Assembly: GCA_031256635.1 (NCBI GenBank)
Contig: JAIRQF010000159.1
Coordinates: forward strand, 1-49,050
Reading direction: 5' to 3'
Length of the DNA: 49,050 nt
From: Treponema sp.
GTDB lineage: Bacteria > Spirochaetota > Spirochaetia > Treponematales > Breznakiellaceae
Shown here: one piece after another, positions 11,473-32,367 of the stretch
How positions within the stretch are numbered: position 1 is the first letter of the stretch
Layout: the number at the start of each line of letters is the position of its first letter
The notes under the pieces: model-generated
Databases searched by the model: none
What the model was told of the DNA's origin: nothing
What the model saw: the letters and a program-made list of their open reading frames with translations, nothing else
Made by a program: the position numbers and the translations under genes

Positions 11473-11476
11473 CAGA

Positions 11477-11593: not shown

Positions 11594-11602
11594 ATTAATT
11601 AA

Positions 11603-15032: not shown

Positions 15033-15191
15033 ATGAATAGAGATACAGGCAAGGGATTAGCGGTTATAGGCGGAGAGGTAGTTTTAGTTGTCCTCTTTTT
15101 AGTGCTTTTACCGGTTATATTAAAAATCGTTTTAACTGTTCTTGGTATTGTATTGATTGTATTTTTGACTAAGAAAATAATGGGAAGATAG
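15033..15191 (+). CDS. Small two-helix membrane protein, copy 2 (52 aa)
   Basis: This paralogue of 10540-10698 has the same length, a polar start MNRDTGKG, two hydrophobic segments, and a basic tail TKKIMGR. The frame is open upstream to 14970, but that would run through the promoter; the ATG at 15033 follows GTGGGG and aligns with copy 1. It ends nine bases before the first GTPase gene, whose ribosome site overlaps its stop codon, so the two are co-translated. This links the small protein to the GTPases; a membrane anchor or regulator is a reasonable inference. Confidence 0.75.
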   Translation: MNRDTGKGLAVIGGEVVLVVLFLVLLPVILKIVLTVLGIVLIVFLTKKIMGR

Positions 15192-15200
15192 GAGAAAAAT

Positions 15201-17120
15201 ATGCCATTACCAGCATTTGTTATTGCCGCAGGATCAGCAATATCTGCCGCAGCGCCGGTTGTGCTAGCAAAAACAGCTGCAGCTGTAGCTATCGCCGCGC
15301 CAATTGCATTAACGGGAGTAAAAGCAATAGCCCAAGGCGGCGGCGTAGTAAACAACTGGTTAAAAGAAAAATGTCCGTTACCTTCCGATTCAGCGGAAAC
15401 GGAAGAGTTTCCGCCTTTGCCTGAATTTTTCTCTGATAATAAAGGATATAAAATAAAACTTCTTAAAGAAGCGGCAGTTACTCTTGGTACGGCAGATGCC
15501 GTTTACAGGACAAGAGGCGTTATCGAACAAATTAATGAAAAAACATTTACGCTGCTTTTTGTCGGAAAATTCAACGCAGGAAAGTCCTCGTTATTAAATA
15601 AAATACTTGGCAGGGATATTTTAAAAACAGGTAAAGGCGAGACAACCAAGATTCTTACATGTTTAATGGGAAAAGATGAAGAAGCCGCGTATTATCATGA
15701 CTATTTATCTGATTCATTGCATGGAATTCCTTTGGATGATGTAAAAAATATTCCTGAAGATCCTCCTGTGTCTGCTATTGTGGCTTGTGTTAATAATGAT
15801 ATTTTAAAACATAATGCGTATTTTATTGATACTCCGGGAATGTACGCTTCCGAGGAAACAGCGAAACTTACAAGAGAAATGCTTAAAACAGCCGATGCGG
15901 TTGTTCTTGTTGTTGATCATTTTCCTGAAGATGTAAATGATAATAAATTCATAGAAGATTTAAAATTCGCTGGAAAGGGAGATCGTTTAATTATCGCTAT
16001 GAATAAAATGGAAAAACTTTCACCCGAAAAACGAAGTACCCGCATAGAAAAGCGAAAAGCTTGGCTTAATGGTTTAGGAATTCGCGCGGATATTTATCCG
16101 CTTTCCTATACTCATAAGCTGGATGCTATTGATAAAGACTTTAATGATTTTCGCGCCGCGCTCGAAGAATATTTAAAAACAGGTTTGCAAAAAGCGAAAG
16201 ACGCCGGTATCGAACAGCGGATAAAAAACACCGCCGCAGAGTTGAGAGACATGTGCAGAGACACTGTAGGATTCGCCAAAGAAGAGAACATCAATTTAAT
16301 TAATAAAACTAGAACCGAAGTACAGGCATGGAAGAAAGAATTTGATGAAAATGTAAAGAAAATACTTCAAGCTAACCGGCGTGAAATACTATACAAAAGA
16401 GAAAGCGTTAAAAGCGAGTGGGGTGAACTGTATGGAAGACTTAAAGGAGAAGTCAGCGTAAAAATTCAAAAAGCAACTGACGGGCAATTATATAATTTGA
16501 ACCAATTATTTGAAGATGTGCAGGCGCAAATAAAAAGATTTCTGATAAACAAATTTCATGAAACAGAAGATCAGATTCGTGACAATCTTAACAAGCTTAG
16601 CGCAGGTTTATCTTTTAATGACGCTAACCTGCCTGTTCCTCAAAGAGCAGGTCAGATGTCCGCGGAACTAGTCCGCTGGGATAAAACCAGAATCCCCGCG
16701 GAATTTGCGTCGATGGGACTGCTTGCATATACTTTAATAACAAAAACAACACAAGGAATTTTTGCGGCGATTGGTTCGATACCTCAACTGTTTTTAATTT
16801 TTACATTGAGTCCGCTCATTAATAAAGTTTTTGCCGAAATACAGGAAGCCGGCGGAAAAATTGCGACTTCGGTTTTAAAAAGCAAGCTGCAGGAAAGAAT
16901 AAATACCGAATGGCCCGGAATAGACAAAAATGTGCAAAATCAAATTGATGCGTATTTTGATGAGCTGCTAAAACAATCGGACAGGATTGAAACAATCGGA
17001 AACAAAAATGGGAAGAATGTTTTTGACGAAAAGATTAACGCAGCGGAATCTTTTAGGAACGGCAATAGAATTTCCGAATTGGAAAAATTAAAAGAGCAAT
17101 TGGATATTGCTTCTAAATAA
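15201..17120 (+). CDS. Dynamin-like GTPase 1
   Basis: The 639-residue protein starts with an Ala-rich hydrophobic stretch (about 1-50) that may form one or two membrane segments. The GTPase domain has G1 GKFNAGKS (122-129), a G2 threonine in KGETTKILT, G3 DTPG (210-213) and G4 NKME (268-271), where the usual Asp of NKxD is Glu. Long helices follow (about 330-500), then a hydrophobic segment (about 505-545) and another helical tail. A GTPase with long helical stalk and hydrophobic tip is the layout of bacterial dynamin-like proteins, which bend, fuse or tether membranes. The start follows AGGAG overlapping the stop of the small membrane protein. A second GTPase gene follows after 11 bases; paired dynamin-like genes often work as heteromers. 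Confidence 0.85.
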   Translation: MPLPAFVIAAGSAISAAAPVVLAKTAAAVAIAAPIALTGVKAIAQGGGVVNNWLKEKCPLPSDSAETEEFPPLPEFFSDNKGYKIKLLKEAAVTLGTADAVYRTRGVIEQINEKTFTLLFVGKFNAGKSSLLNKILGRDILKTGKGETTKILTCLMGKDEEAAYYHDYLSDSLHGIPLDDVKNIPEDPPVSAIVACVNNDILKHNAYFIDTPGMYASEETAKLTREMLKTADAVVLVVDHFPEDVNDNKFIEDLKFAGKGDRLIIAMNKMEKLSPEKRSTRIEKRKAWLNGLGIRADIYPLSYTHKLDAIDKDFNDFRAALEEYLKTGLQKAKDAGIEQRIKNTAAELRDMCRDTVGFAKEENINLINKTRTEVQAWKKEFDENVKKILQANRREILYKRESVKSEWGELYGRLKGEVSVKIQKATDGQLYNLNQLFEDVQAQIKRFLINKFHETEDQIRDNLNKLSAGLSFNDANLPVPQRAGQMSAELVRWDKTRIPAEFASMGLLAYTLITKTTQGIFAAIGSIPQLFLIFTLSPLINKVFAEIQEAGGKIATSVLKSKLQERINTEWPGIDKNVQNQIDAYFDELLKQSDRIETIGNKNGKNVFDEKINAAESFRNGNRISELEKLKEQLDIASK

Positions 17121-17131
17121 GGAGTTTTAAA

Positions 17132-19114
17132 ATGAATAACTTACCGGAAACGAAAAAAAGATTTTACCCGATTATCGAAGGTTATGTAAATTTTCTTGAA
17201 CGCAAAGGAAGCAAAGACGAGCTTAAGAAATATTTTATTACGCAAAGAGAAGTTATAAAGCGGGATAGATATCAGATTGCGCTGATTGGACATGTAAGCC
17301 GCGGTAAATCAACTTTGTTAAACGCGTTACTTGGGCAAAAGGGAAATTATGATTTAGCGCCTGTTGACAATGAGGCGACTACCGCAGCTATAGTTAAATA
17401 TATTGACTCTGAGCTAAACCAAGAGGCAAAGGGCAAGGAAGAAGCGGTAATCAAATTCAATAATGGAAATATAAAAAGAATTGATAGATCTGAGTTAAAT
17501 AAATTTATCAATTGGGAAGCTCCCGGCTTTAGTGAAAGTAAAACCGAAGAAATAGAATATATAGAAGTATATGGCAATTTTCCTTTAATAGAAACAAGAG
17601 GTGTTTTTGTTGATACGCCTGGCAGGGGAGCTTTACATAATCAGGATCAATTAACCCTGGATATTTTACCGATGGTTGATGTCATACTTTGTCCTATTTC
17701 TGTTGATCTTCCTCTTGAATTGGACGAAAGAAGGTTTTTAAAAAACCTGCGAAAAGACGATAAAAATAAATTGATGTATGTTGTTACAAAAATTGATGAC
17801 TGTGACGAAGACGAACAGGATGAATTAAATAAAATAATTTCTGATGTTGAAAAAATAGCTTCTGAAACAGGCGGGGGAATGGGTGTATTTCCGACAGCCG
17901 CAAAAAAGGTTTTGGATTTATATGAAAATTATGAAAGCAGTGAAGATACAATAAAAAAAGCAAAACAAAAATGGGGCATGCAGGATTTAGAAAACGCACT
18001 AGACGATAAACTTCGCAAAGAATCAAACGCGGCGGATCGTATAAGAGAAGTAGGCAAGGCATTAGAAGAAAATATTAACAGCGACTTGGGCCGTTTAAAT
18101 GAAAACTTAAATGATTTTAAATTAAAATCTGCGGACTTAGGAAAGAAAAAAGAAGTTCTTGAAACTACTATTAGTAATTTAAAAACTTCTTTTGATAAAA
18201 ATTTTAAGAAATTAGAACGGGAATGGAAAAAAACTGTAATACGCTTTACAAGAAGACTAGAAAGTAAAGGAGGCGTTATTGCAGATAGTATTATTCACGG
18301 ATTTGAAAATAAAAATTTGTTTTATTTAATAGGAAAATCATCTCAGTTTTCCAGGGATATTCAAAAGAAATTAAACGGAATGATAGAACCTGAACTTCTT
18401 GATCTTCAGGATCAACTGATTGATGTTATTGAAAAATTTGCAAAGGAATTGGAAAATGATTATAACGATGATATAGCAATATATAGTACAGCTTTTCCGC
18501 AAAATAGTTTAAAAAATGAAATCGGAGCATTTGTAGGAAGCGGCATCGCTGTAGGCGGGGCGGTTGCAGGCGCGTCATTAATAGGTACCGGTGTATTACC
18601 AATAGCAACTGCTATATCAGGATTATCAAGTGCCGCTGTCACAGCGGCAGGAGCAAGTCCGATAGGTGCATGGTTTCTGGGACTTTTTGGTGCCGGTGCA
18701 AATGCGGGGTTAGCCGCCGCTCAAGCTACTTTATTAGGCGCTTTGGCAACGGGTCTTCTTCCTATAATTGGCGGAATTGTATGTGTTATAATTACTTATA
18801 ACCTTGGATCCAAGTTTGCAAAAGACAAGACAGTAAGTAATATTCCGGTAATGGTAGAAGCTCAAATAAAGGCAGCTGTTGAATCTATAAAAGAAACATC
18901 TGAAAAAATGTTAAAAGCCGTACTTTCTGATTTTAAACCTCGTATTGATGCTTTACTTGACGGTAAAATAGATGAGTTAGAAATAATAATCAATGATGTA
19001 AAAGCTCTTGGCGGCGAGAAGAGGCGCAAAGATATTGAACAGGATATTAATGAACTTGAAGATTTTTCTAACAGATTAAAACCTCTGTTAAACGAAATAA
19101 GGGCTGGATTTTAA
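17132..19114 (+). CDS. Dynamin-like GTPase 2
   Basis: The 660-residue protein has G1 GHVSRGKS (53-60), G2 threonines in EATTAAIVKY, G3 DTPG (161-164) and G4 TKID (219-222). Helices with coiled-coil character (about 305-460) follow. A long Gly/Ala-rich hydrophobic region (about 465-560) could insert into the membrane as a hairpin, and a charged helical end closes the protein. This is again a bacterial dynamin-like layout, with the membrane segment late in the chain. AGGAG precedes the ATG, and it is separated from GTPase 1 by 11 bases, so the two are in one operon. Base use is AT-rich like its neighbours. Confidence 0.87.
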   Translation: MNNLPETKKRFYPIIEGYVNFLERKGSKDELKKYFITQREVIKRDRYQIALIGHVSRGKSTLLNALLGQKGNYDLAPVDNEATTAAIVKYIDSELNQEAKGKEEAVIKFNNGNIKRIDRSELNKFINWEAPGFSESKTEEIEYIEVYGNFPLIETRGVFVDTPGRGALHNQDQLTLDILPMVDVILCPISVDLPLELDERRFLKNLRKDDKNKLMYVVTKIDDCDEDEQDELNKIISDVEKIASETGGGMGVFPTAAKKVLDLYENYESSEDTIKKAKQKWGMQDLENALDDKLRKESNAADRIREVGKALEENINSDLGRLNENLNDFKLKSADLGKKKEVLETTISNLKTSFDKNFKKLEREWKKTVIRFTRRLESKGGVIADSIIHGFENKNLFYLIGKSSQFSRDIQKKLNGMIEPELLDLQDQLIDVIEKFAKELENDYNDDIAIYSTAFPQNSLKNEIGAFVGSGIAVGGAVAGASLIGTGVLPIATAISGLSSAAVTAAGASPIGAWFLGLFGAGANAGLAAAQATLLGALATGLLPIIGGIVCVIITYNLGSKFAKDKTVSNIPVMVEAQIKAAVESIKETSEKMLKAVLSDFKPRIDALLDGKIDELEIIINDVKALGGEKRRKDIEQDINELEDFSNRLKPLLNEIRAGF

Positions 19115-19248
19115 TTATTTTATCTGCATTAATAAAAATTGCTAATAATCTTTCTCTCATAAAATATAAAAAACGTCTAAAAAAATTAAATAATTCTATT
19201 TGTTTTTATAAAACTTATTTTGAATCAAATTCAGAGTATCCTCCGGAA

Positions 19249-22200
19249 ATGAAAGATACCATTGACCATTTAAAAAAACTACAGAAAGAAATACTGAGGT
19301 ATCAGAAAATATTAACTGGTAACAAAAATATAAAAGTCGGCGTCTTTGGCTGTCAAAACCGTGGAAAATCAACTTTAATTAATGCATTACTTGGCATTGA
19401 AATATTACCTGCACAAAAAAGCTTAGGAACAACAAAATACGGAACAGAGATTCGTTTTAAAAAAACAAAAAGGAAAAAACCATATAGAGTAACAATAATA
19501 TATAATGATAGAGAAGAAGATAAATATTTTGAAGATCATAAAGAAATAGATATAAGAGGACAACTGGAATCAATAACCAATGATAATGAATATATAAAAC
19601 CAAGCACAAAAGAAATAATTATTGAAGGTCCGTTTAATTTATTTTTTAAAAATAAAAAAATCATTTTTATTGATACTCCGGGCGTTGAACCCGGCTGGAA
19701 CGAAACCCATTTAACTGATGTTCCGGAAGCAGAAATATATAAACTTCACACAGAACGAACGCTTGAAGTCCTTGAACATTCTGATGTTGATGTTGTTATT
19801 TTTTGTTTACGATGTAACTATACAGAGGCAACAGACAAAGATTTTTACATAGAACACATAAAGAAAAAATACGAAACCATAAACGTAGTTACTCATGCGG
19901 ATAAAAGAGATTATTCTATTACCGAAATAATTAATAAAAAACAAGAGCAATACGGGTTGATGCCTTCTAATACTGTAGTTGTAGATTCCAAAGGCGCTCT
20001 AAAAGAAATAATTAAAGTACGAAATGAAAAACCAAAACTTAAAGATAAATTAAAAATAATAAAGGATAATTTAAAAAATAAAAAAAATATGATAGAGTTT
20101 TTTAAAGATGTTTTCAAAGAAACAAAGAAAGTACTGAGTAAAAAAGAAGCAATAAAAGATATTTTTGAAAATAATGAAAACTTTTCTGGATTTTTGAAAC
20201 TAGAGGAACTAATTTTAGAAAATGCAGGAATAATAGATAGAAAAACTATAAAAGAAAAAATAGTAAAATATGAAAGTGAATATTCTAAATTAAATATAAA
20301 AATTATAAAATATTATGAAGAATATTATAAAAAGCAAGGCATAACAAAAAAACAAAAACCCAAAAAGAGAAAAAACAAAAAATTAATAATATGGCTTATT
20401 ATTATAGCAATTATTTTATTTTTCGCGTTGCCTCATAGAATTGAATACAGACCATATTCGGTTGAATTTTCGGATAAATCCTCTGTCCCTGCCGAATTTA
20501 TAGGCAGATGGTATTCTGGAGACAGTGAAAATACGCCGTTTATGTATGAAATTACCCCGGACGGACAAATAATACGCGAAGACGAATCGCGCATACGAAA
20601 ATTTCTTAAAGAGGGGTTCACGTTAATTATTTATACCGGAAATGTTATTATTAATGAGAATAAAATTACCATAGCGGATAAGTCTAAAACTATAGGAACA
20701 GCAGATTTAAATATTTCGAATAACGTATTAACTTTAACAAATATCGAAGGTAAAATGCAGGGAATGCCTGTTAAGCACTTTAAACATGATATTAAATATG
20801 ACTGCAACATTGATGATAAAAAATATACAACAGCTATCAATTTGGAATTTAAGCATCTTGTGCGTAATTTATCTATAGAGGATATATTAATAAATGAAAT
20901 TACCGGATCTGTAGAACCGGGAAATTTATATTCAAACGGAAAATATTGGACATTGCCGGTTACAGTTACAAAAGCCGGAACAATTGAAATTTCAATTGAT
21001 GTACCGGGTATAGATAATACGCCGCAGCCTATAAATGTGGATAATAGAATAACTTGGAAATATGCGCTTGATAACAATAATAATACAACCAGAATCAATT
21101 TTTCATTTATTAAACCTGTTAATGATCTTTCAATAGATAATATTGAGATAATTAGCGGTACAACATCTGTAGAAAAAGTTAATATAACAGGCAATGAAAA
21201 TTATTGGTCGCTGAATGTTAAATTGCCGGATTTTAAAAGCGGTGATATAAATGTAAAAATTAATTATCCGGGTGTTGACGCGGATTGGGAGAGAATTAAT
21301 GTTTATTGGCAGCCGTTAACATGGACATGGAGTACAGAGAGCGACGATAAAGAAAAAACAAAGGCTGTAAAATTAAAATTTTCGCATCCTGTTGATCTTT
21401 TAATAGATGATATTGTTATTTATTCAGGAACTGCCAATGCGGAAAAAAAGGATTTAATTGGCAGTGAAGATAAGAAAGAGTGGACGCTTAATATAGTTTA
21501 TAAAAGTTTTAACAGCGGAAATGTATTATTAAGAATCAATAAACAAGGCATTGAAAACACATCAAAGCAAATTCCGGTACTAAGGCCTATTATCAAATGG
21601 AGCGCGGTGGCTGTAGGTTCTCCTTATACAACCGGCATTGAATTTATATTTGATGAATCTATAGATGAATTTAATGAATATTTAGAGCTTATTTTTAACA
21701 ATATTATAATTGAAGGAACCAGCAAAATTGAACGGGGAGTTTTTGAAGGTGATAAAACAACATGGTTAATGCCGATAAATGTTACAAGTATCGGAAATGG
21801 AAATATATCTGTATTTATTAATGTTTCAGGAATTGAAGAAAAAAGAGAGTTAATAGACGTTACAAGAGAGCCTGTTAAATGGTCAATGCAAATTGATGAT
21901 GATTCAGCCAGACCAAATATTAACTTTGAATTTTCTGAATCAATAGATTTGCTCGAGAGCAATATAATAATTTCTGATGAAAACGGAGCAGTGGTTAGAA
22001 CAATATTTAACGGAGAGGGAACACTTTGGTCGCTTGAGGTAATAGTCGTTAAATCTGGTGAAATAGAAATTTCAATTAATCAAAACGGAATTGATGAAAT
22101 AAAAGAAAAAAGAGAAGTTAAATTATCACCTGTAAAGTATGCTCATGCAGGAGAAGAACATTCAATAATTATTAGAGAAGACGGATCATTGTGGACATGG

Positions 22201-23127
22201 GGTTTAAATAATCAAGGGCAGCTTGGTGATAATACCATAATAAATAAAAACAGTCCCGAATTAATTGATAATAATATTTGGGTTGATATTTCCGTTGTAG
22301 GACAGAACACAGCGGCTGTTAGTCAAAACGGTAAATTATGGTTATGGGGAGGTGACAGAAATTATTTCACGGCAGCGCAAATGGAAGAAAATTTTTCTTC
22401 TGTATCATTAGGATCGAATTTTGTTATCGCGATAAAAAACGGCGAACTTTGGGCGTGGGGAAATAACGCAAATGGTAGATTAGGTGATGGTTCAACTATT
22501 AATCACTCGGAACCTGTTCGAATAGGGCAGGATAGCACATGGTCTTTAATTTCAACAGGTGAGGAGCATACTGCCGCGATAAAAAAAGACGGATCGCTTT
22601 GGACATGGGGACATAACGGACAAGGAAGACTTGGAAGATCCGGAAATGAAAGGGTGCCGTTACAGGAATCCGAAAGAGCGATGGATTGGTCATATGTTTC
22701 GGCGGGAAGCATGCATACTATGGCGATAAAGAATGACGGCTCTCTGTGGGCATGGGGAAATAATTCTTACGGCAGATTAGGATTAGGCGATACAAGACAA
22801 CGTGATGTTCCCGTAAGAATTGGAGATGAAAACTGGCTCTCGGTATCAGCAGGACAAAATTATACTGTAGCGGTAAAGGCGGATGGTTCTCTTTGGGGAT
22901 GGGGAAATAATGATAACAATAAGTTAGGTGTCAGCGGGCACCGTTATATAACATCACCGGAAAGGATTGGCTCGGGAAGTAATTGGAAGTCTGTCTCCGC
23001 CGGTATTAATCATATCTTACTCATTGATAATAACGGTTCGCTTTGGAGTATGGGTGAAAATAATTATGGTCAGCTTGGCAACGGCACTACAACACCAAGC
23101 GGAGTTCCGATTCCGGTAACATATTAA
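19249..23127 (+). CDS. Transmembrane GTPase with lipocalin-like, beta-sandwich and RCC1 repeats
   Basis: The 1292-residue chain has several parts in order. A dynamin-like GTPase domain carries G1 GCQNRGKS (34-41), G2 TT (61-62), G3 DTPG (142-145) and G4 THAD (215-218). A charged helical part is followed by one strong membrane helix (about 379-398). A lipocalin-like domain (about 410-520) starts PAEFIGRWYSGDSE. Five beta repeats of about 85 residues (about 530-960) share the pattern FS/FxxPV...DI.I..GT...VEK, W.L.V, SG.I.I.IN..GI. Seven RCC1 repeats (963-1292; DGSLWTWGxNxxGQLG) are enough for one full propeller, with repeat 2 degenerate. With the GTPase in the cytoplasm, the rest should face outside the cytoplasmic membrane. 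No good ribosome site precedes the ATG, and the frame is open back to 19072 without a usual start codon, so the true N-terminus may lie upstream. Confidence 0.85.
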   Translation: MKDTIDHLKKLQKEILRYQKILTGNKNIKVGVFGCQNRGKSTLINALLGIEILPAQKSLGTTKYGTEIRFKKTKRKKPYRVTIIYNDREEDKYFEDHKEIDIRGQLESITNDNEYIKPSTKEIIIEGPFNLFFKNKKIIFIDTPGVEPGWNETHLTDVPEAEIYKLHTERTLEVLEHSDVDVVIFCLRCNYTEATDKDFYIEHIKKKYETINVVTHADKRDYSITEIINKKQEQYGLMPSNTVVVDSKGALKEIIKVRNEKPKLKDKLKIIKDNLKNKKNMIEFFKDVFKETKKVLSKKEAIKDIFENNENFSGFLKLEELILENAGIIDRKTIKEKIVKYESEYSKLNIKIIKYYEEYYKKQGITKKQKPKKRKNKKLIIWLIIIAIILFFALPHRIEYRPYSVEFSDKSSVPAEFIGRWYSGDSENTPFMYEITPDGQIIREDESRIRKFLKEGFTLIIYTGNVIINENKITIADKSKTIGTADLNISNNVLTLTNIEGKMQGMPVKHFKHDIKYDCNIDDKKYTTAINLEFKHLVRNLSIEDILINEITGSVEPGNLYSNGKYWTLPVTVTKAGTIEISIDVPGIDNTPQPINVDNRITWKYALDNNNNTTRINFSFIKPVNDLSIDNIEIISGTTSVEKVNITGNENYWSLNVKLPDFKSGDINVKINYPGVDADWERINVYWQPLTWTWSTESDDKEKTKAVKLKFSHPVDLLIDDIVIYSGTANAEKKDLIGSEDKKEWTLNIVYKSFNSGNVLLRINKQGIENTSKQIPVLRPIIKWSAVAVGSPYTTGIEFIFDESIDEFNEYLELIFNNIIIEGTSKIERGVFEGDKTTWLMPINVTSIGNGNISVFINVSGIEEKRELIDVTREPVKWSMQIDDDSARPNINFEFSESIDLLESNIIISDENGAVVRTIFNGEGTLWSLEVIVVKSGEIEISINQNGIDEIKEKREVKLSPVKYAHAGEEHSIIIREDGSLWTWGLNNQGQLGDNTIINKNSPELIDNNIWVDISVVGQNTAAVSQNGKLWLWGGDRNYFTAAQMEENFSSVSLGSNFVIAIKNGELWAWGNNANGRLGDGSTINHSEPVRIGQDSTWSLISTGEEHTAAIKKDGSLWTWGHNGQGRLGRSGNERVPLQESERAMDWSYVSAGSMHTMAIKNDGSLWAWGNNSYGRLGLGDTRQRDVPVRIGDENWLSVSAGQNYTVAVKADGSLWGWGNNDNNKLGVSGHRYITSPERIGSGSNWKSVSAGINHILLIDNNGSLWSMGENNYGQLGNGTTTPSGVPIPVTY

Positions 23128-23315: not shown

Positions 23316-26300
23316 ATGCGTTACTATGACAATGCCCCAGGCACAAAGGAAATTACTCAAAGGATCGAAAGATGCCGCCGTGAACAGGCTGAAGTCTTGG
23401 ATATTTCCAACTTGTATATGCTGGAAGTGCCGGAAGAAATAAAGAACTTGCCGCATCTAAAAGAACTTAATATTGGTTACAATAAACTGCAGGAATTACC
23501 GGATTGGATAGGACAGCTGCAATCTCTTAAAAAATTGATTATAAAAGGGAACAGTATTGTTTTGCTTCCCGATTCTCTTGGAGAGTTAACAAATCTCGTC
23601 TTTTTTGATGCCGGTATAAACGGGATTAATAATATTCCCGAAAGTTTAAAACAATTAAATCATCTTGAATATCTCGATCTGGAATCATTAAGATTATTTG
23701 ACAATGTAATAACTCCGAACGATGTTAAAACGCTGCCTGATTGGATAGGCGGATTGTCCGCCCTTAAATATTTAAACATTAACCATTGCGGAATTAACGC
23801 ATTGCCCGAATCAATTAAAAATTTATCCAATTTAAAAACATTTTATCTTGGCGCTAATTGTTTGCCGGAGCTGCCGCAGTGGCTTGGAGAAATGACTCAG
23901 CTTGAAGAACTTGATATAAGCGCGAAGGAAATTTATAAAATACCGGATTTTATCGGAAACCTTAAGAATCTTCGTACTTTTAATCCAGGTTATTCAAACG
24001 AATGGGAATATCTTAGGCTTCATCGTTATATGTCAAATCTGGACGAGCAGATAAACGAGCTTGATGAACTACCGGATTTTATTTCAGCTCTGCCGCGTCT
24101 TGTGCATTTAAACCTCGGGCATACAAGATTAAAAAAAGTGCCGGAAAATCTTCGCGCATTAAAACTGGAAAGCCTTTGTCTCGACTGCAATGAATTAACA
24201 GAAATACCGCAGTGGCTTGGCTCAATGACAAGTTTAAAAAAACTTGATTTATCCAAAAATGAAAATTTGAAACATCTTCCTGAAAGCTTAAAAAAACTTT
24301 GCAATCTGGAAGAGTTCAGTATAAACGAAACATTTATCGGCAAGTTTCCAAAATTTATCCGGGAGTTAAAAAAATTAAAAAGTTTATCTATTGGCGGCAT
24401 TTATACTTCGGCTATCCGGATTTTTAATTTCGAATTTGACGCTTTTTCCAAATCAATAACAGTTCCAAAATGGCTCGGCGAACTTTCAGGTCTTGAATGT
24501 TTAAATTTTGGGCATTGGGTTTCTAAAATTCCTAAAAGTATTGGTAATTTAATTAACTTAAAGAAACTTACATTAGAACAAAGTAAAATAAAGAGTTTAC
24601 CTGAGTCTATTGGAAAACTCTCTTCGCTTAAAGAAATGACGCTTGAACATAATTACCGCCTTTGTAAACTGCCTAAGTCATTTGGCAGTCTTGTTTCACT
24701 GGAAAAATTAAATTTAACAGGAGTTGTTTCATTCTTTTATAAGTGGAAAAAACTCCCTGTTTCTTTTGGTAATTTAAAATCATTAAAAAAATTGATAATT
24801 AATAATCTTTGCGGTCTTAGAACACTGCCGGATTCATTCGGGAAACTTTGTTCTCTTGAACGTCTTGATTGTGATGTTCCCAATCTTCCTGAATCTTTCG
24901 GTAATTTACCGTCACTTTTTGATTTATCAATTACAGGCAGTGAAATTCGCCGCCTCCCTGAATCCTTCGGAAATCTTAAAGCGCTTGAAAAATTTGAACT
25001 TGTTAATACAGAGATTGAATCTCTCCCTGAATCTTTCGGAAACCTGTCCGCATTAAAAATATTTCACACTTTCCGAGGAAATCTTACGCGTCTTCCCGAA
25101 TCTTTCGGAAACCTTGCTTCTCTTGAAGAAATTAATCTTGATCACAGTAAAACAGAATATTTCCCTCTTTCTTTTGGGAATTTAAAATCATTAAAATATT
25201 TTTGTTTTGAAAAAGGCGCTGAAAGTTATGAAGAAGAACCAAAGAAAAATAAAAAACAAACTGAAGAGCAGAAAAATGATACAATCCGTTTCCCTGAATC
25301 AATCGGAAACCTTTCATCTCTGGAAGAATTAAAAATCAGTTGCCGTCTTGCCGCTCTTCCTGAATCATTTGGAAATTTAAAATCACTTAAAAGATTGGAT
25401 TTAAGTTTAATGGTTGATGTAGAATATCATCTAAAAGGAGGAGCCAGTTTTATAGGTCCTTGCTTTACCATTAATGATTTTTCTTCTTTGCCTGATTCAT
25501 TCGGCAACCTTTGCTCTCTGGAAATATTTTTTATTAAAGGCGGAAATATTAAAACACTGCCTGAAAATTTCGGAAATCTTCGCTCGCTTAAAACATTGGG
25601 AATAGAAGACACAAAACTTGAATCGCTTCCTGATTCATTTGGGAATCTTGGCAATCTAGAAGAATTGATAATCAGCAATGTAAGCTATGTACGCGATGAA
25701 GAAGATAAGGTAAAACCTTTGTTGTTACCCGCATCAATAGGAAAGCTTTCAAAACTTAAAAAATTGACAATTAAATCGCCGCTGGAACCAATTCCCGAAT
25801 GGCTTGGAACAATGGATGCTCTGGAAGAATTTTGTTTAACATCAGATACAATAAGTATCATTCCGAATTCGATATGCGATCTTTCTTCGCTTAAAGAATT
25901 TTATATTGACTGTAAAGAATTAACTGCGCTGCCGCTTAATATCGGAAATTTAAAAAACTTAAAAATATTAAATATAGACGCGCCTTCCTTAAAATCATTG
26001 CCGGAATCAATCGGAAATCTTAGCATTCTTGATTCGTTTAAAATAGAAAGCTCTTCTATTTCTGTTTTGCCGGATTCAATCGGCAATTTATCTTCGTTAA
26101 CAAGATTGTATGTTTATCAGTCAAAATTAATAGTTCTGCCGGATTCAATTTCGAATTTAGCATCTATAAGAAAAATACGCATCATACGCTGTCCTGAGTT
26201 TGAATCTCTTCCTGAAAAAATAGGAAACTTAAAAACCCTGGAAACAATGACAATTCGCGGCGGAACAATAACATCGCTTCCTGATAGTATCGGAAATCTC

Positions 26301-26750
26301 TCTTCTCTTTATGGGTTGCAATTACAATATACAAATATAAAGGAACTTCCCGATTCTATCGGAAATTTAAGCAAACTTATTTCTTTGGGCGTTTACAGTT
26401 ATCGTAATAAAATGTCATGGGACGGCGGCTTTGATACTCCTCCTGAGTATAATGATGATAAAACTAATGAAAAAAGAAGTCCTCTAAACAAACTACCTGA
26501 CACAATTTCAAAACTTGAATTGCTTGAAGAACTTAATTTGGATTGTTCTGAAATAAACGAATTGCCGCAATTTTTAGGAAATCTTCCCAAGCTTAGAGAA
26601 ATCAGAATTAACGGCTGCAATATTTCATCAATTCCTTCTTCGATTCAACGGCTTGCTGATAACGGAGAAATTTCTCTTATTAGGACAGATGATGATTTTT
26701 ATCACAGCGAAAGAGGCGGAAGAGTAAAAAGAAAACCAAGGAGAAAATAA
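23316..26750 (+). CDS. Large leucine-rich-repeat protein 1
   Basis: The 1144-residue protein is almost entirely leucine-rich repeats of about 23 residues with consensus LPxSFGNLxxLxxLxIxxxxI, the class seen in intracellular plant and bacterial LRR proteins. It starts with a capping segment (about 8-70: TQRIERCRREQAEVLDISNL, then VPEEIKNLPHLKELNI) like that preceding LRRs in Roco-type proteins. A basic tail (VKRKPRRK) closes it. There is no signal peptide or membrane segment, so it is probably cytoplasmic and binds proteins. Charged insertions of about 20-40 residues break the array around 620-650 and 700-720. AGGAGG stands before the ATG. It is a close paralogue of the gene at 28957, and it runs into the next gene with two bases between stop and start. 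Confidence 0.9.
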   Translation: MRYYDNAPGTKEITQRIERCRREQAEVLDISNLYMLEVPEEIKNLPHLKELNIGYNKLQELPDWIGQLQSLKKLIIKGNSIVLLPDSLGELTNLVFFDAGINGINNIPESLKQLNHLEYLDLESLRLFDNVITPNDVKTLPDWIGGLSALKYLNINHCGINALPESIKNLSNLKTFYLGANCLPELPQWLGEMTQLEELDISAKEIYKIPDFIGNLKNLRTFNPGYSNEWEYLRLHRYMSNLDEQINELDELPDFISALPRLVHLNLGHTRLKKVPENLRALKLESLCLDCNELTEIPQWLGSMTSLKKLDLSKNENLKHLPESLKKLCNLEEFSINETFIGKFPKFIRELKKLKSLSIGGIYTSAIRIFNFEFDAFSKSITVPKWLGELSGLECLNFGHWVSKIPKSIGNLINLKKLTLEQSKIKSLPESIGKLSSLKEMTLEHNYRLCKLPKSFGSLVSLEKLNLTGVVSFFYKWKKLPVSFGNLKSLKKLIINNLCGLRTLPDSFGKLCSLERLDCDVPNLPESFGNLPSLFDLSITGSEIRRLPESFGNLKALEKFELVNTEIESLPESFGNLSALKIFHTFRGNLTRLPESFGNLASLEEINLDHSKTEYFPLSFGNLKSLKYFCFEKGAESYEEEPKKNKKQTEEQKNDTIRFPESIGNLSSLEELKISCRLAALPESFGNLKSLKRLDLSLMVDVEYHLKGGASFIGPCFTINDFSSLPDSFGNLCSLEIFFIKGGNIKTLPENFGNLRSLKTLGIEDTKLESLPDSFGNLGNLEELIISNVSYVRDEEDKVKPLLLPASIGKLSKLKKLTIKSPLEPIPEWLGTMDALEEFCLTSDTISIIPNSICDLSSLKEFYIDCKELTALPLNIGNLKNLKILNIDAPSLKSLPESIGNLSILDSFKIESSSISVLPDSIGNLSSLTRLYVYQSKLIVLPDSISNLASIRKIRIIRCPEFESLPEKIGNLKTLETMTIRGGTITSLPDSIGNLSSLYGLQLQYTNIKELPDSIGNLSKLISLGVYSYRNKMSWDGGFDTPPEYNDDKTNEKRSPLNKLPDTISKLELLEELNLDCSEINELPQFLGNLPKLREIRINGCNISSIPSSIQRLADNGEISLIRTDDDFYHSERGGRVKRKPRRK

Positions 26751-26752
26751 AA

Positions 26753-28957
26753 ATGAAAACGACACAGAGCATGAAAGATTTGTTAATAATGGATGAGAAT
26801 GAAATGTACGCAGAAGCTCAAAGACGGATTAAAGAATGCCGAATAAAAAAGGGCAAGATGCTTGATTTTTCCTGTCTTCATCTTACAAAAATTCCTCCCG
26901 AAATCGCAGAGCTGGAAACTCTGACAGAATTAAATTTAAAAGATGTTGACATAAAAGAAATCCCGGATTTTATCGGAAAAATTACTTCTTTAAAAAAATT
27001 AAGTGTTGGCTCGGATCACGGCGGCAAATACAAAAAAGATGAAATTGTTTTGCCGCCGCAGCTTGCGAACCTGCATAATCTGGAAAACCTTTCTCTTGGA
27101 TATGGAACTCCCGTAATTCCGCAGTGGGTTTACGGAATGCAAAATTTAAAAGCCTTAAGTATACACAGTGAGTTTGCAGAGACAATCCCGGCAGAAATTG
27201 TTAATTTAAAAAACCTTAATAAATTGCGCGTATATGGATATAAAATTTCCAGCTTACCGCGTGAAATTGGAGAACTTCTTTCGCTGACTTTTATTGATCT
27301 AAACTGTCCTCATCTGGAAAAGCTGCCTGAAACATTTGCTGCTTTAAAAAACTTGAAAATATTTAATTCTCAAGGTTGTGAATTTGACAGCATCCCTGAT
27401 TTTATCTGTGGCTGGATAAAATTGGAATATTTAGGAATAAATATGATGGATGATTTTTTTAAAAGTTCTAATTCAAAAATGAAACGGATACCAAAAAATA
27501 TCTGTAATTTAAAAAAATTAAAAACACTTGATCTTCATGGCACAAGCATTGATAAAATTCCTGATTCCCTGGGAAATTGTCCTCTTGAAAATCTGGCTCT
27601 TACCGGAGATTTTAAATCCATACCGGAATCATTTGGCAAACTTGACAAATTGAAATTATGTGAACTCTATTCAAATAAACCATTTTCACTCCCGGATTCT
27701 ATCGGATATCTTTGCGCATTAAAGAAAATGTCAATAAGCGCTCCGGCGATTAAATTGCCGTCTTCATTCGGCAGACTTGTTTCTCTTGAAGAATTGAATA
27801 TTCGTACAGGAAAAGATTTTAGTTTTCCAAAGAATTTCGGAGGATTGTCTTCGTTAAAAGATATTTATATTAATGCTGAAAAAATGCAAAAATTGCCTAA
27901 TTCAATAGGTGAATGTAAGAATATTAAAATACTGAATGTTGAAAGCGATAAGTTAACAATTTTACCTGATTCTTTTTGTAAATTAAAATATCTTGAAGAA
28001 CTTCACCTTGATACATTCGCGCTGAAAAAATTGCCGGATAATATCGGAAAACTCTCTGCATTAAAATATTTCTATATTGTATCAGGCGCATTGACTGCTT
28101 TCCCCGAGAGTATCGGCAATTTAAAAGAATTAAAGTATCTCTCAATTGACACTTATAATGTTAAAAAACTGCCGTTATCATTTAATAAATTATCGTATTT
28201 AAAAAGATCTTCTGTCTGTATCGGTAAGGAAGAACCGGCTTTTATGATGAATATTCACAGTAAACCTTCCGGTAATAATAAAAAAAGAAAAATTGATTTT
28301 AATGAATTTATCAGTATGGGACATACATACAGATGGAAACTTCTTGAAAGTTACTCTGTAAAGCAGATTGAATCCCTTTTAAAGGCGGCGCCTCGTTTTA
28401 ATGAATCATCCAATGAAGGAAAAGAAGTAGTAAGAGACTTTATGATGATAAGGAGTAGAAAGCTTAACAAAATATTTAAATGGACAGATGAAAACATAAA
28501 ACAAACTGTAAAAACAGGCGGCGCTTTTATTAAAGCATGGGAGGATAGTTTTAATAAAGTAAAAAAAATGCTTGAAGCCCTGGAACAGACAAAAGAAAAA
28601 TATCATGTAGAAATCATATTGCGTCCTGAAATTCTCAGTGATGAAACTGATGATATAGAGTTGTATAGTACAATGACAAATTATTTAAAAGCTGAGTATG
28701 AAATGAGCATATGTTTAAATTTTGATTCAAATAACAAAGAAGAATCGCTTAAAAAAATGGAAGAAGATTTTAATAATGATCTTAATATCAGGAATGAATT
28801 AAGCTGGAACATAGAAGGTTTTGGGGATATTGAATTAAAAGATCATTATATCTGCTATGCTTTACATACTCTGTATTCTCATAACAACTGGGCAAAAGGG
28901 GATATAATAAAAATTAATAATATCCTTGCAGAAATAAGAATAACAGGAGGTTTATGA
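26753..28957 (+). CDS. Leucine-rich-repeat protein 2 with unique C-terminal domain
   Basis: The 734-residue protein has a short acidic start, the same capping segment as its neighbours (about 20-75: AQRRIKECRIKKGKMLDFSC, then IPPEIAEL), and LRRs to about residue 490. The last 240 residues are not LRR: a mixed helical region (SMGHTYRWKLLESYSVKQIE, then KWTDENIKQTVK, then AWEDSFNKVKKMLEALEQ) and an alpha/beta end with LSWNIEGFGDIELKDHYICY. I do not recognise this domain; it is absent from the two flanking LRR proteins, so it is the likely functional difference between them. AAGGAG at the end of the previous gene is its ribosome site. Its TGA shares its last base with the ATG of LRR protein 3, so translation is coupled. 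Confidence 0.85.
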   Translation: MKTTQSMKDLLIMDENEMYAEAQRRIKECRIKKGKMLDFSCLHLTKIPPEIAELETLTELNLKDVDIKEIPDFIGKITSLKKLSVGSDHGGKYKKDEIVLPPQLANLHNLENLSLGYGTPVIPQWVYGMQNLKALSIHSEFAETIPAEIVNLKNLNKLRVYGYKISSLPREIGELLSLTFIDLNCPHLEKLPETFAALKNLKIFNSQGCEFDSIPDFICGWIKLEYLGINMMDDFFKSSNSKMKRIPKNICNLKKLKTLDLHGTSIDKIPDSLGNCPLENLALTGDFKSIPESFGKLDKLKLCELYSNKPFSLPDSIGYLCALKKMSISAPAIKLPSSFGRLVSLEELNIRTGKDFSFPKNFGGLSSLKDIYINAEKMQKLPNSIGECKNIKILNVESDKLTILPDSFCKLKYLEELHLDTFALKKLPDNIGKLSALKYFYIVSGALTAFPESIGNLKELKYLSIDTYNVKKLPLSFNKLSYLKRSSVCIGKEEPAFMMNIHSKPSGNNKKRKIDFNEFISMGHTYRWKLLESYSVKQIESLLKAAPRFNESSNEGKEVVRDFMMIRSRKLNKIFKWTDENIKQTVKTGGAFIKAWEDSFNKVKKMLEALEQTKEKYHVEIILRPEILSDETDDIELYSTMTNYLKAEYEMSICLNFDSNNKEESLKKMEEDFNNDLNIRNELSWNIEGFGDIELKDHYICYALHTLYSHNNWAKGDIIKINNILAEIRITGGL

Positions 28958-31900
28958 TGAGTATTTACGATAATGTACCAAACAGAAAGGAAATAAATAA
29001 AATAATAGAAAAATGCCGCAGTGAAGGGGGAGATGCTCTTAATCTTTCCGATTTGTATATAAAAACTATCCCGGAAGAAATTAATAATTTTACAAATCTT
29101 AAAGAACTTAATATTAGTTATAATAAAATTGAGAAGCTGCCGGATTGGATAGGAAATCTTTGTTCTCTTAAAAAATTAAACATAAGAGGGAATAGAATCA
29201 ATTCGCTTCCAGATTCATTGGGAGAATTAAAAAATCTTATTATACTTGATGCCGGTGTTAATAATATTCGCAGCATTACAGATAATTTAAGGCAGTTAAA
29301 ACTTCTTGAATATCTCAATTCGGATTCGATTTCCGGTTATGAAATAAAAGACCTTCCTGAATGGATAGGAGAGCTGTCTGCGCTTACATATTTAAATATA
29401 AGTCATTGCGGGTTTAAATCCCTGCCGGAATCAATAAAAAATCTTTCCAATTTAAAAACATTTTTACTCGGCGCAAATTGTTTAAAAGAATTACCGCAGT
29501 GGCTTGGAAATATGACACAGCTGGAGGAACTTGATATAAGCGCGAATGAATTTTACAAAATACCTGAATTTATAGAAAGCTTAAAAAATCTGCGTTCTCT
29601 TTCTCTTGGTCATTCTAAAAAATGGGAATACCATGAACATCATCATACCCAATCCGATATTGACAGGCAAATAAACGAACTTGATATAATTCCGAACTTT
29701 ATCGTAAAACTGCCGCATCTTGTTCATCTTGACCTTGGCAATACCGGATTAAAAAGACTGCCGGATTTTTTAAGTAATTTAAAACTTAAGAGCTTGTCTC
29801 TTGGCGGCAACGAGTTAACAGAAATCCCCGAATGGCTTGGAATTATGACAAGTTTAAAATTACTCGATCTGTCAGAAAATAAAAAATTAAAAAGTCTGCC
29901 GAAAAGTTTAGAAAATCTTTGCAATCTGGAAGAATTGAATTTAAACGAGACATCTATCGGCGCTTTTCCAAAATGTATACGCAGGTTTAGTAAATTAAAA
30001 AGATTAACTGTTGGCGGAATATATAAGCAGCCTTTATATTTAAGCAAATTTAAATTCGATATATATTCTAAATCAATTGTTATTCCAAACTGGATAGGCG
30101 AACTTTCAGCTCTTGAAGAATTGAGTTTTGGTCAATGGATATCAAAAATTTCTGAAGGCATCGGAAATTTAAAAAACTTAAAAAAATTGAAACTGGACAG
30201 TTGTAAAATAAAAACTCTGCCCAAATCTATAGGAGAACTTTCCTCGCTTAAAGAATTAAGTATTGATAGCTGCGGTAACCTTAAAAATCTCTCAGAATCG
30301 TTCGGTAATCTTGCTTCGCTTGAAAAATTAATATTATCAGGAAATTTTGAAATTAAAAATAAATTGAAAAAACTGCCGGAAACTTTTGGAAATTTAAAAG
30401 CGTTAAAAGAACTGGACATCTGTAATCTTCATGGTCTTAAAACTTTGCCGTATTCTTTTGGTAACTTGTCTTCTCTTGAGCGGTTTAACACAGACCTTCC
30501 CAATCTGCCGGAATCCTTCGGCAATTTACCGTCTTTAATTGAATTATCAATAAATGGAAGCGATATACGCGGTCTTCCTGAATCATTCGGAAATCTTAAA
30601 GTTCTTGAAAAATTTGAACTTGTAAATACAGAAATAGAATCTCTCCCGGAGTCATTCGGAAACTTATCAGTTTTAAAAACATTTCACACTTTCCGGGGAA
30701 ATCTTAAACGTTTACCTGAATCATTCGGGAACCTTGCCTCTCTGGTAGAACTTGAATTTGGTCACAGTAAAACCGTCTGTTTTCCGGATTCTTTCGGCAA
30801 TTTAAAAGTATTAAAAAACTTTAAATTTGAAAGGAGCAAAGAATATCACAACAGAAAAGATTTCATGGAAGAAAAACATGATGATGATTTTATAAGTTTG
30901 CCTGAATCTTTCGGGAATCTTACATCTCTTGAGAACCTTGAATTAAACTGCTGTCTTGATGCGCTTCCTGAATCATTTGGAGACTTAAAATCATTAAAAA
31001 ATCTGGAATTGGATTTTAGTATTTGGGTAGATAATTTTTATAACAAGGGACGAGGACGTGAAGGAAGCCATGGATATGTAAAAAATAATTTTTACGCATT
31101 GCCGCAGTCCTTCGGCAGTCTTTGTTCTCTGGAAACATTCTCTATAGACGGAAGCAATATTAAAACACTTCCCGAAAGTTTCGGCAATCTTTGCTCGCTG
31201 ACACATTTGGAAATTTGTCGTTCAAAACTGGAATCTTTGCCTGAATCGTTCGGGAATCTTCAAAATCTTGAAATTTTAAGCATTAATAATTTTAGTAATG
31301 ATGAGAATCTTAATGAAGAGAAAATAAAACCTTTAGATTTACCTGAATCAATCGGCAGGTTATCAAAATTAAAAAATATCGATATTGATATTCCGCTGCA
31401 ATGTATTCCTGACTGGCTTGGAGGAATGTCCTCTTTAGAAAAAATCACTATAAAATCAGATACAATAAGCGTTTTGCCGGATTCAATATGCGATCTTGCT
31501 TCGCTTAAAGAAATGAAAATCGAATTTAAAAAATTAACCTCGCTTCCGGAAAATATCGGAAAACTTAAAAATCTGGAAAATATAAATATTGACGCACCTT
31601 CTCTTACCTCACTGCCGGCGTCAATAGGAAACCTAAACAGGCTTAATGTATTAACAATAGAAAGCTCTTTTATTTCTGTTCTGCCAAATGAGATTGGAAA
31701 CCTGTCATCATTAACAAGGCTGTATGTATATCAATCAAAAATTAAAACGCTGCCGGATTCTATCGGTAATTTATCATCGCTGTTAAAAATCCGATTGCTT
31801 CGTAATCACGAACTGGAAACTCTTCCAGAAACAATCGGAAATCTGCGCTCTCTTGAAACGCTGTATATTCGCGGCGGAAAAATGACAACGCTTCCTGAAA

Positions 31901-32367
31901 GCACCGGAAATATCTCCTCTCTGCGCGGAATCAGTTTGCAATATACAAATATAATTAAGCTCCCGGGTTCGATAAGTAAACTTGACAAACTTGTTTATTT
32001 TGGAATTTACAGCTATCGTAATGAAATGCCTTGGGATTATAATATCGATAATCCGCCGGATTTCATGGAAAATACAACAACAGAAAAAAGAAGTCCCTTC
32101 AGCGAATTGCCCGCTTCAATGGCAAAACTCGTCTCTTTAAAATGCATTACTCTGGATAATTCCGAAGTAACTGTATTGCCGGATTTCTTGGCTGATCTTC
32201 CTGAATTGGAAGAAATCAACATCAACGGCTGTAATATTAAAGAGATACCACCGTCACTTCAGCGTCTTATAGATAACGGAGAGATAAGCCTTTATAAATC
32301 CGATGAAGAATTTTTGGAACGCGAATGGGGTGGTTTCCGGGAAAGAAAAAAGCCGAGGAGGAAATAA
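28957..32367 (+). CDS. Large leucine-rich-repeat protein 3
   Basis: The 1136-residue protein parallels LRR protein 1 along its whole length: same cap (NKIIEKCRSEGGDALNLSDL), same order of repeats and insertions, and same basic tail (RKKPRRK). Two ATG codons occur in a row at 28954 and 28957. The second has the better distance to GGAGG and aligns with the start of LRR protein 1, so I chose 28957, which overlaps the previous stop by one base. No signal peptide is seen. The two large proteins probably arose by tandem duplication and have diverged moderately. The likely role is protein binding, perhaps to the GTPases encoded upstream; this is inference from position. Confidence 0.9.
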   Translation: MSIYDNVPNRKEINKIIEKCRSEGGDALNLSDLYIKTIPEEINNFTNLKELNISYNKIEKLPDWIGNLCSLKKLNIRGNRINSLPDSLGELKNLIILDAGVNNIRSITDNLRQLKLLEYLNSDSISGYEIKDLPEWIGELSALTYLNISHCGFKSLPESIKNLSNLKTFLLGANCLKELPQWLGNMTQLEELDISANEFYKIPEFIESLKNLRSLSLGHSKKWEYHEHHHTQSDIDRQINELDIIPNFIVKLPHLVHLDLGNTGLKRLPDFLSNLKLKSLSLGGNELTEIPEWLGIMTSLKLLDLSENKKLKSLPKSLENLCNLEELNLNETSIGAFPKCIRRFSKLKRLTVGGIYKQPLYLSKFKFDIYSKSIVIPNWIGELSALEELSFGQWISKISEGIGNLKNLKKLKLDSCKIKTLPKSIGELSSLKELSIDSCGNLKNLSESFGNLASLEKLILSGNFEIKNKLKKLPETFGNLKALKELDICNLHGLKTLPYSFGNLSSLERFNTDLPNLPESFGNLPSLIELSINGSDIRGLPESFGNLKVLEKFELVNTEIESLPESFGNLSVLKTFHTFRGNLKRLPESFGNLASLVELEFGHSKTVCFPDSFGNLKVLKNFKFERSKEYHNRKDFMEEKHDDDFISLPESFGNLTSLENLELNCCLDALPESFGDLKSLKNLELDFSIWVDNFYNKGRGREGSHGYVKNNFYALPQSFGSLCSLETFSIDGSNIKTLPESFGNLCSLTHLEICRSKLESLPESFGNLQNLEILSINNFSNDENLNEEKIKPLDLPESIGRLSKLKNIDIDIPLQCIPDWLGGMSSLEKITIKSDTISVLPDSICDLASLKEMKIEFKKLTSLPENIGKLKNLENINIDAPSLTSLPASIGNLNRLNVLTIESSFISVLPNEIGNLSSLTRLYVYQSKIKTLPDSIGNLSSLLKIRLLRNHELETLPETIGNLRSLETLYIRGGKMTTLPESTGNISSLRGISLQYTNIIKLPGSISKLDKLVYFGIYSYRNEMPWDYNIDNPPDFMENTTTEKRSPFSELPASMAKLVSLKCITLDNSEVTVLPDFLADLPELEEININGCNIKEIPPSLQRLIDNGEISLYKSDEEFLEREWGGFRERKKPRRK

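What the first reader, a model, noticed from the sequence alone, without database searches (positions are those of the whole stretch)
15033..32367. Candidate new system: small membrane protein, three dynamin-like GTPases, three LRR proteins
Seven plus-strand genes follow each other with short or overlapping junctions, except for two gaps of about 130 and 190 bases. All are AT-rich compared with the dap and sugar genes. Paired dynamin-like GTPases are known in membrane remodelling and, in the Eleos (LeoBC) system, in phage defence; I know of no described system that adds a transmembrane GTPase with a propeller and three large cytoplasmic LRR proteins. A sensing role for the LRR and propeller proteins and an effector role for the GTPases would fit, but this is inference.
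Basis: partly seen in the sequence, partly recalled or inferred. Interest (0 to 1): 0.85.

Follow-up and report, generated by a model that had tools for sequence, protein, structure and literature searches.

The report
Three-GTPase dynamin operon with swappable sensor
A spirochaete genome, probably from a termite gut, carries three neighbouring membrane-remodelling GTPase genes, one of which bears an exchangeable sensor-like domain; related sets occur in a few relatives, and the large leucine-rich-repeat genes beside them look like a separate module that landed in the same insertion site.

Summary
In detail: seven plus-strand genes, three of them dynamin-type GTPases (A, B, C), one 52-residue membrane peptide, three LRR proteins, all AT-rich. 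The seven-gene system does not hold. A-B-C recurs in the same order in 5 of 195 genomes of the family (6 loci, 4 genera), with matching A, B and C distances. LRR2 with its own C-terminal domain occurs in 8 genomes, 6 of them without a B match. All seven genes lie in a 23.5-kb low-GC island between dapL and a GH3 gene, which are 28-112 bp apart in five relatives; other relatives hold other cargo there (STAND-like ankyrin protein, AAA ATPases, an LRR2 end). A resembles Cj-DLP2/LeoA and B resembles BDLP1, as in known dynamin pairs. The new part is GTPase C, whose tail is exchanged: TM, Ig-like repeats and RCC1 propeller here, an FGE/FGS domain in a same-genus genome, no such domain in three others. 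A Lysinibacillus plasmid has a comparable three-dynamin operon whose first GTPase has a TM and an SH3_3 tail. Best reading: a dynamin pair guarding the membrane, controlled by a third, sensor-bearing GTPase, probably in defence. The function is untested.

The parts
15201..17120 (+). GTPase A: dynamin-like protein, Ala/Gly-rich hydrophobic N-terminus, hydrophobic segment 518-540
   Evidence: Dynamin_N 57 bits; best PDB profile match Cj-DLP2 5owv_C, E 9.4e-19; hydropathy and motifs G1 GKFNAGKS, G3 DTPG, G4 NKME
17132..19114 (+). GTPase B: dynamin-like protein with hydrophobic stretches between 466 and 560
   Evidence: Dynamin_N 65.3 bits; best PDB profile match Nostoc BDLP 2j68, E 4.3e-19, then IniA and Cj-DLP1; hydropathy
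19249..23127 (+). GTPase C: N-terminal dynamin-type GTPase, TM at 375-400, Ig-like repeats (judged by eye and a short pattern), RCC1 propeller to the end
   Evidence: Dynamin_N 57.7 bits, RCC1 six stretches; one TM after a Lys/Arg-rich stretch; repeats
19072..19248 (+). stop-free stretch in C's frame, probable N-terminal extension of C in part (59 codons, overlaps the end of B; no ATG/GTG/TTG, ATT and ATA codons present)
   Evidence: other C proteins have a longer N-terminus
15033..15191 (+). 52-aa membrane peptide (s52)
   Evidence: no relative upstream of A in G444, G557, G428; both G003 contigs end 77-93 bp before A and cannot tell
10540..10698 (+). second 52-aa peptide, 71% identical to s52, at the left end of the island
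23316..26750 (+). LRR1: LRR protein without hydrophobic segments, 62% identical to LRR3; separate module
   Evidence: relative beside an LRR2 relative in G002 without GTPases
26753..28957 (+). LRR2: LRR protein with its own C-terminal domain (about 235 residues) without a shared Pfam family; separate module
28954..32367 (+). LRR3: paralogue of LRR1
32441..33697 (-). AAA_14/DUF4143 ATPase, island cargo, 79% identical to a gene at the same site in G015
10861..14656 (.). rest of the island's left part: 203-aa protein with a sub-threshold DUF4230 match (10861-11472, +) and M16C/PreP-like peptidase (11603-14656, -)
9245..10468 (+). aminotransferase (called dapL here; name inferred from its Pfam class and dap neighbours), left border of the insertion site
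33925..36039 (+). GH3 glycosidase, right border of the insertion site

Best explanation
The unit is the GTPase trio A-B-C. A and B are a dynamin-like pair that binds the inner membrane through hydrophobic tips. C is a third GTPase that works as the regulated switch: its tail is the sensor and is exchanged between lineages. In this genome C is a single-pass receptor with the GTPase inside and Ig-like repeats plus an RCC1 propeller outside. Binding of something outside, such as a phage, an attacking peptide or a neighbour's surface, is thought to change the state of C, which recruits or releases the A-B pair to tether, fuse or seal the membrane, delaying lysis or limiting spread as DynA does in Bacillus. 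The LRR proteins are a second accessory module carried in the same insertion hotspot. Shown: domains, order, conservation, exchange of the C tail, insertion site. Inferred: topology, complex formation, trigger, and the defence role.
For: A-B-C in the same order and strand at 6 loci in 5 of 195 family genomes, gaps 10-20 bp except A-B in G444 (127) and B-C in the window (134). Each of the six strong B loci has an A and a C neighbour, one C being cut by a contig end. A, B and C identity matrices agree across loci (r 0.91-0.96; 1-2 of 720 relabelings as good; related loci are not independent). C tail: RCC1 here, FGE-sulfatase in G003 L020 and in a second C-type fragment at C60, no such domain visible in L072-L074 (by eye; families not searched for those three). 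A matches Cj-DLP2 best, B BDLP best. All 6 A match PADLOC LeoA, all 6 B match LeoBC. RCC1 proteins opened in G002 and G001 begin with lipoprotein-like signal sequences by eye, which fits an outside propeller. The insertion site carries conflict-type cargo in some relatives. A Lysinibacillus plasmid has three adjacent dynamin genes, the first with TM then SH3_3. DynA delays lysis after phage infection (PMC8844932, passages).
Against: No functional, expression or interaction data. PADLOC scores are modest (window A to LeoA 56.7 bits, B to LeoBC 60.3) and their cut-offs were not available. C's G4 is variable (NKRD in one G003 copy, DKRD in the window, others weaker) and window A has NKME, so some may bind GTP weakly. 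Neighbours of A-B-C differ from locus to locus and are not consistently defence genes. G003's FGE-bearing C has no TM, so the sensor is not outside in every member. Site cargo also includes genes without a defence look. The structure model of C's GTPase region is poor (mean pLDDT 53). The C of G428 is about equally close to window B and window C.
Confidence: 0.45

Rival explanations
1. One seven-gene system: LRR and propeller proteins sense, GTPases act.
For: Same strand, short junctions, similar GC; no plus-strand terminator-like or listed promoter-like site in the two gaps (a weak scan whose 8 weakest promoter sites are not shown); LRR2 C-terminal domain and core co-occur in 2 genomes, 0.2 expected (hypergeometric P 0.014).
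Against: Adjacent in 1 of 5 core genomes; in G444 the two lie on different contigs; 6 of 8 LRR2 genomes have no B match; G002 has LRR1- and LRR2-like genes together without A or B; G009 and G013 have an LRR2 end at the same GH3 gene without A or B.
Confidence: 0.1
2. Membrane upkeep or vesicle release, not defence: the DLP pair repairs or sheds membrane and C senses envelope stress or the gut surroundings.
For: LeoABC was linked to secretion of periplasmic and outer membrane proteins (PMC4159319, passages); an outside sensor on C would suit envelope stress.
Against: Rare and patchy (5 of 195), low GC, in an insertion hotspot, about 40% identity between same-genus A proteins against 73-88% for most same-genus dapL matches: unlike housekeeping genes.
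Confidence: 0.3
3. An Eleos variant: A and B are LeoA and LeoBC, and C is an optional accessory.
For: All 6 A match LeoA and all 6 B match LeoBC.
Against: A C gene is beside all six strong B loci; A also matches LeoBC in 6 of 6 and B LeoA in 4 of 6, and window B matches LeoA better than LeoBC, so the models do not separate the two.
Confidence: 0.15

Closest known systems
Bacterial tandem dynamin pairs (Campylobacter Cj-DLP1/DLP2, Nostoc BDLP)
   Same: Two adjacent, different DLP genes; A nearest Cj-DLP2, B nearest Nostoc BDLP, then IniA and Cj-DLP1; hydrophobic tip region
   Different: A third GTPase, with an exchangeable tail in some, is next to the pair at all six loci seen; the Cj pair is described as two genes with an HcpA-like gene (PMC6104087, passages)
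LeoABC / Eleos
   Same: A and B match PADLOC LeoA and LeoBC
   Different: No split LeoC/LeoB; third GTPase with sensor-like tail; Eleos as a two-component defence system is recalled, not read
DynA of Bacillus subtilis
   Same: Two dynamin units acting together; protects the population from phage by delaying lysis (PMC8844932, passages)
   Different: One fused protein; no sensor-bearing third GTPase in the passages seen
[quoted passage not shown] 2020, PMC7159879)
   Same: Constant GTPase or ATPase core plus variable modules, FGS domains among them; one A-B-C locus (G557) is followed by a DO-GTPase2 gene
   Different: A, B, C have no DO-GTPase2 match; the paper's main text has 0 occurrences of dynamin and of RCC1
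Three-dynamin operons on Lysinibacillus capsici plasmids pFN9A and pFN9B
   Same: Three adjacent dynamin-family genes with junctions of -4 to 20 bp; in pFN9B the first has TM then SH3_3
   Different: Sensor-like gene comes first, not third; 22-31% identity over parts only for pFN9B; no TM in the pFN9A trio

Membership tests
Tandem bacterial dynamin pair | Two adjacent full-length DLP genes of different subtype | tested here: met
   the profile matches cover mainly the GTPase and neck part
Tandem bacterial dynamin pair | Hydrophobic paddle or tip late in the chain | tested here: met
   window A 518-540, B 466-560 by hydropathy; A of G557 has no segment over the threshold
Tandem bacterial dynamin pair | Hetero-oligomer that tethers membranes | not testable with these tools
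   needs purified proteins
Eleos (LeoA, LeoBC; definition recalled) | One gene of LeoA type and one of LeoBC type | tested here: inconclusive
   A matches LeoA in 6 of 6 and B LeoBC in 6 of 6, but A also matches LeoBC in 6 of 6 and B LeoA in 4 of 6; cut-offs unknown
ETEC LeoABC | Second DLP split in two, with a membrane anchor at the end of the first half (LeoC) | tested here: not met
   B is one continuous gene at all 6 loci; feature from PMC4159319 passages
Eleos | Phage protection | not testable with these tools
   no experiment
DO-GTPase/GAP1 systems | DO-GTPase domain in the core GTPases | tested here: not met
   no PF19993 match in window A, B or C at E 0.01
NLR/STAND receptors | NTPase and LRR in one polypeptide | tested here: not met
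   no NTPase family among the matches of LRR1-3
DGR-diversified FGS sensor | Reverse transcriptase in the genome with the FGS-bearing GTPase | tested here: not met
   no RVT_1 match in G003, a draft given as 92% complete

The most novel reading that the evidence does not exclude
A class of tri-dynamin guard systems, present in Spirochaetota and Bacillota, in which one GTPase is a receptor with an exchangeable ectodomain or lectin-like tail (RCC1 propeller, FGS, SH3) that gates a dynamin pair at the membrane: a bacterial receptor-controlled dynamin immune machine.
Probability: 0.35. Interest if true: 0.82.

Novelty: new variant of a known kind. Interest (0 to 1): 0.6.

Why it matters
Bacterial dynamins are known mostly as pairs or fusions, and what switches them on is largely open (my understanding of the field). 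A conserved third GTPase with an exchangeable, in this case probably extracellular, sensor would give a direct handle on that question. It would also link dynamin-type membrane machines to the sensor-swapping logic described for other bacterial conflict systems.

Tried and rejected
Seven-gene unit: rejected by separate distribution of the LRR family and by no relative of the 52-residue peptide upstream of A in G444, G557 and G428; the two G003 contigs end too close to A to tell, and whole genomes were not searched for the peptide. Diversification of C's FGS tail by a retroelement: no RVT_1 match in G003. Phage or plasmid carriage: no relative of A, B or the LRR2 C-terminal domain in viral contigs by pattern scans; in plasmids (A and B) and phages (B only) just partial, distant dynamin matches. 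Wider spread: the one genome-contig scan used two narrow peptide patterns and returned only the two G003 loci. In 392 phylum genomes A gave only partial matches outside the window (this even sample does not list G003), and of the 15 best B loci opened none showed A-B-C, but they are only 3.3-4 kb long. Absence elsewhere is therefore not shown, and C alone was never searched across genomes. Fold of C's GTPase region: model too poor to use. LRR2 C-terminal domain: no Pfam family shared by more than 1 of 9 members. LRR1 against LRR3: 701 of 1131 identical; over 23 pattern-found units the lowest identity (7 of 23) is at a presumed exposed strand position, which fits but does not prove ligand-driven variation.
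Full report
What is there. GC of the seven genes is 0.32-0.39, against 0.44-0.48 in the dap and glycosidase genes, and third-position GC is 0.24-0.31 against 0.40-0.49. The small gene is a 73-aa ORF from a TTG in the mechanical list; the 52-aa form from the ATG at 15033 is favoured by a 71% identical peptide at 10540-10698 that begins at the same residue. The 134-bp gap before GTPase C is stop-free in C's frame, 59 codons in all, and other C proteins have a longer N-terminus, so C probably begins further upstream with an unusual start.

Where it comes from. The window lies in an unnamed draft genome of 2.48 Mb. A same-genus genome, G003, has two contigs of the same lengths and matches as public records of a MAG named Spirochaetes bacterium Th196P1bin3. 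Placement in Breznakiellaceae, a family with most termite-gut spirochaetes, is my inference. The family's GC is given as 43.2-52.9% in PMC13067680 (passages); the island is 33.7% and the rest of the window 45.6%.

The GTPase trio is a unit. A profile of B found strong relatives (at least 150 bits) in 5 of 195 family genomes: window, G003 twice, G444, G557, G428; 13 further genomes had weak matches. All six loci have A, B and C in the same order and strand, with A-B gaps of 11-19 bp (127 in G444) and B-C gaps of 10-20 bp (134 in the window). One C, in G003, runs off its contig, and the C of G428 is about as close to window B as to window C. Identity matrices of A, B and C across the six loci correlate at 0.91-0.96, and only 1 or 2 of 720 relabelings, the true one included, do as well; the loci are related, so this is supportive, not a strict test. 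The trees show the same splits when read without roots; window against G444 is unresolved, and B's inner split has support of only 91/94. Window and G003 A proteins, same genus, are about 41% identical, although most same-genus dapL matches are 73-88%; G003 itself has no close dapL match. This suggests transfer or old divergence. A shortened A gene without B or C on its contig was seen in G488.

What the GTPases are. Profile A finds Cj-DLP2 best in the PDB (E 9.4e-19), profile B finds Nostoc BDLP (4.3e-19), then IniA and Cj-DLP1. Cj-DLP1 and Cj-DLP2 form a described heterotypic pair in which Cj-DLP2 is grouped with LeoA and Cj-DLP1 with BDLP1 (PMC6104087, passages). A and B match PADLOC's Leo models: A LeoA in 6 of 6, B LeoBC in 6 of 6, with cross-matches. 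Profile C finds Era, Der and mitofusin GTPase domains. C shows no late hydrophobic paddle and in G444, G557 and G428 is only 383-426 residues. G1 and G3 are present in A, B and C at all six loci; G4 is variable in C and NKME in window A.

The tail of C is exchanged. In the window it is a TM at 375-400 after a Lys/Arg-rich stretch, Ig-like repeats (judged by eye) and an RCC1 propeller. In G003 (L020) it is an FGE-sulfatase domain with no TM, in a genome with 70 matches to that family, against 6 in the window's genome. In the window's genome RCC1 is found only in this gene. RCC1 proteins opened in G002 and G001 start like lipoproteins (by eye), so an outside propeller is plausible. FGS domains are described as invader sensors in bacterial conflict systems (PMC8195603, passages). 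No RVT_1 match was found in G003, so retroelement diversification is not supported there.

A comparable set elsewhere. Distant dynamin matches on plasmids led to Lysinibacillus capsici pFN9B, with three adjacent dynamin genes (999, 641, 574 aa). The first has a TM at 585-611 and an SH3_3 match above its cut-off at 672-714. A second plasmid of the strain, pFN9A, has another trio without TMs. I opened nine plasmid stretches: by their incomplete gene tables two have trios, three have pairs (Prescottella, Anabaena, Treponema) and four show one dynamin gene (Nostoc, Lichenicola, Aphanizomenonaceae, Bacillus). Identity of the pFN9B proteins to A, B and C is 22-31% over parts, so common descent of the trios is not shown.

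The LRR genes are separate. LRR2 has its own C-terminal domain without a shared Pfam family. By the match table, 8 of 195 family genomes have it (G000, G444, G567, G002, G001, G431, G009, G013); six of these have no B match, and in G444 it is on another contig than the trio. The flanks opened in G444, G567, G002, G001, G431, G009 and G013 show no relative of A, B or C. G002 has LRR2- and LRR1-like genes side by side. Two of 5 core genomes have the LRR2 domain (0.2 expected, P 0.014): weak association remains possible.

An insertion hotspot. dapL and the GH3 gene enclose the island: 23,456 bp apart here. Of 39 genus genomes, eleven have both on one contig within 25 kb, the window included (in G016 and G038 only the start of GH3 is on that contig). 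Five have 28-112 bp between them: G035, G006, G011, G020, G016. Five have other inserts: G007 1.1 kb, G012 2.1 kb, G038 4.3 kb (small genes, one resembling an Rhs fragment by eye), G015 4.9 kb with an AAA gene 79% identical to the window's, and G010 9.3 kb with an AAA/ankyrin, STAND-like protein. In G013 an AAA_5 gene cut by the contig end follows dapL, and an LRR2 end opens the contig that carries GH3, with small genes between; in G009 an LRR2 end is directly before GH3. In the other genomes of the genus the two genes lie on different contigs or one has no close match, and I did not examine them.

How it most likely works. A and B act as a membrane-binding dynamin pair; C is the regulated switch with the sensor. 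Binding at the propeller outside would shift C and so recruit or release A-B to seal or remodel the membrane. DynA of Bacillus delays lysis after phage infection (PMC8844932, passages), a tested precedent for dynamin protection. Rivals are envelope upkeep or vesicle release (LeoABC; PMC4159319, passages) and membership of Eleos. None has been tested for these genes.

Known or new. Kaur et al. 2020 (PMC7159879, outline and passages) has no occurrence of dynamin or RCC1 in its main text; PMC10907252 (passages) has none of dynamin. Paper searches listed no paper whose title or shown abstract describes a three-dynamin operon with a sensor-bearing GTPase; the phrase 'three dynamin' had 0 occurrences in the ten papers listed of 95. 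The library holds open-licence papers only, so this is not proof of novelty. I rate it a new variant of the tandem bacterial dynamin kind.

Noticed in passing
window 10540-10698: Second 52-residue membrane peptide, 71% identical to the one before GTPase A, just after dapL.
   Followed up: partly
G003 (L019-L021 and other contigs): 70 matches to the FGE-sulfatase family and 44 RCC1-repeat matches in one draft genome, against 6 and 6 in the window's genome.
   Followed up: no
G557 contigs C25, C27, C59 (L162, L164, L163): RVT_1 matches lie about 1.4 kb from FGE-sulfatase matches on the same strand, as in diversity-generating retroelements.
   Followed up: no
L177 6333-11828: In G010 the same insertion site holds two genes without Pfam match and a 1042-aa AAA/ankyrin, STAND-like protein.
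   Followed up: partly
window 28235-28954 and relatives in L098-L105: LRR2 C-terminal domain, about 235 residues, without a shared Pfam family; also found without LRRs in L102 and L103.
   Followed up: partly
L073 4367-4816 and L099 7412-7843: LRAT-domain genes near the GTPase trio of G557 and beside the LRR2 relative of G567.
   Followed up: no
L195 4371-9282; L075; L077: WYL-type regulator followed by a pair of dynamin genes on a Treponema saccharophilum plasmid; a similar GTPase pair follows a regulator-like gene (by eye) in G548, and G432 has a related pair.
   Followed up: no
L190 966-7632 and L193 1322-8362: Two different three-dynamin operons on two plasmids of one Lysinibacillus capsici strain.
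   Followed up: partly
L076 4191-5330: Shortened GTPase A gene in G488 without B or C on its contig.
   Followed up: no
window 1000-5559: 1519-residue minus-strand protein without any Pfam match at E 0.001.
   Followed up: no
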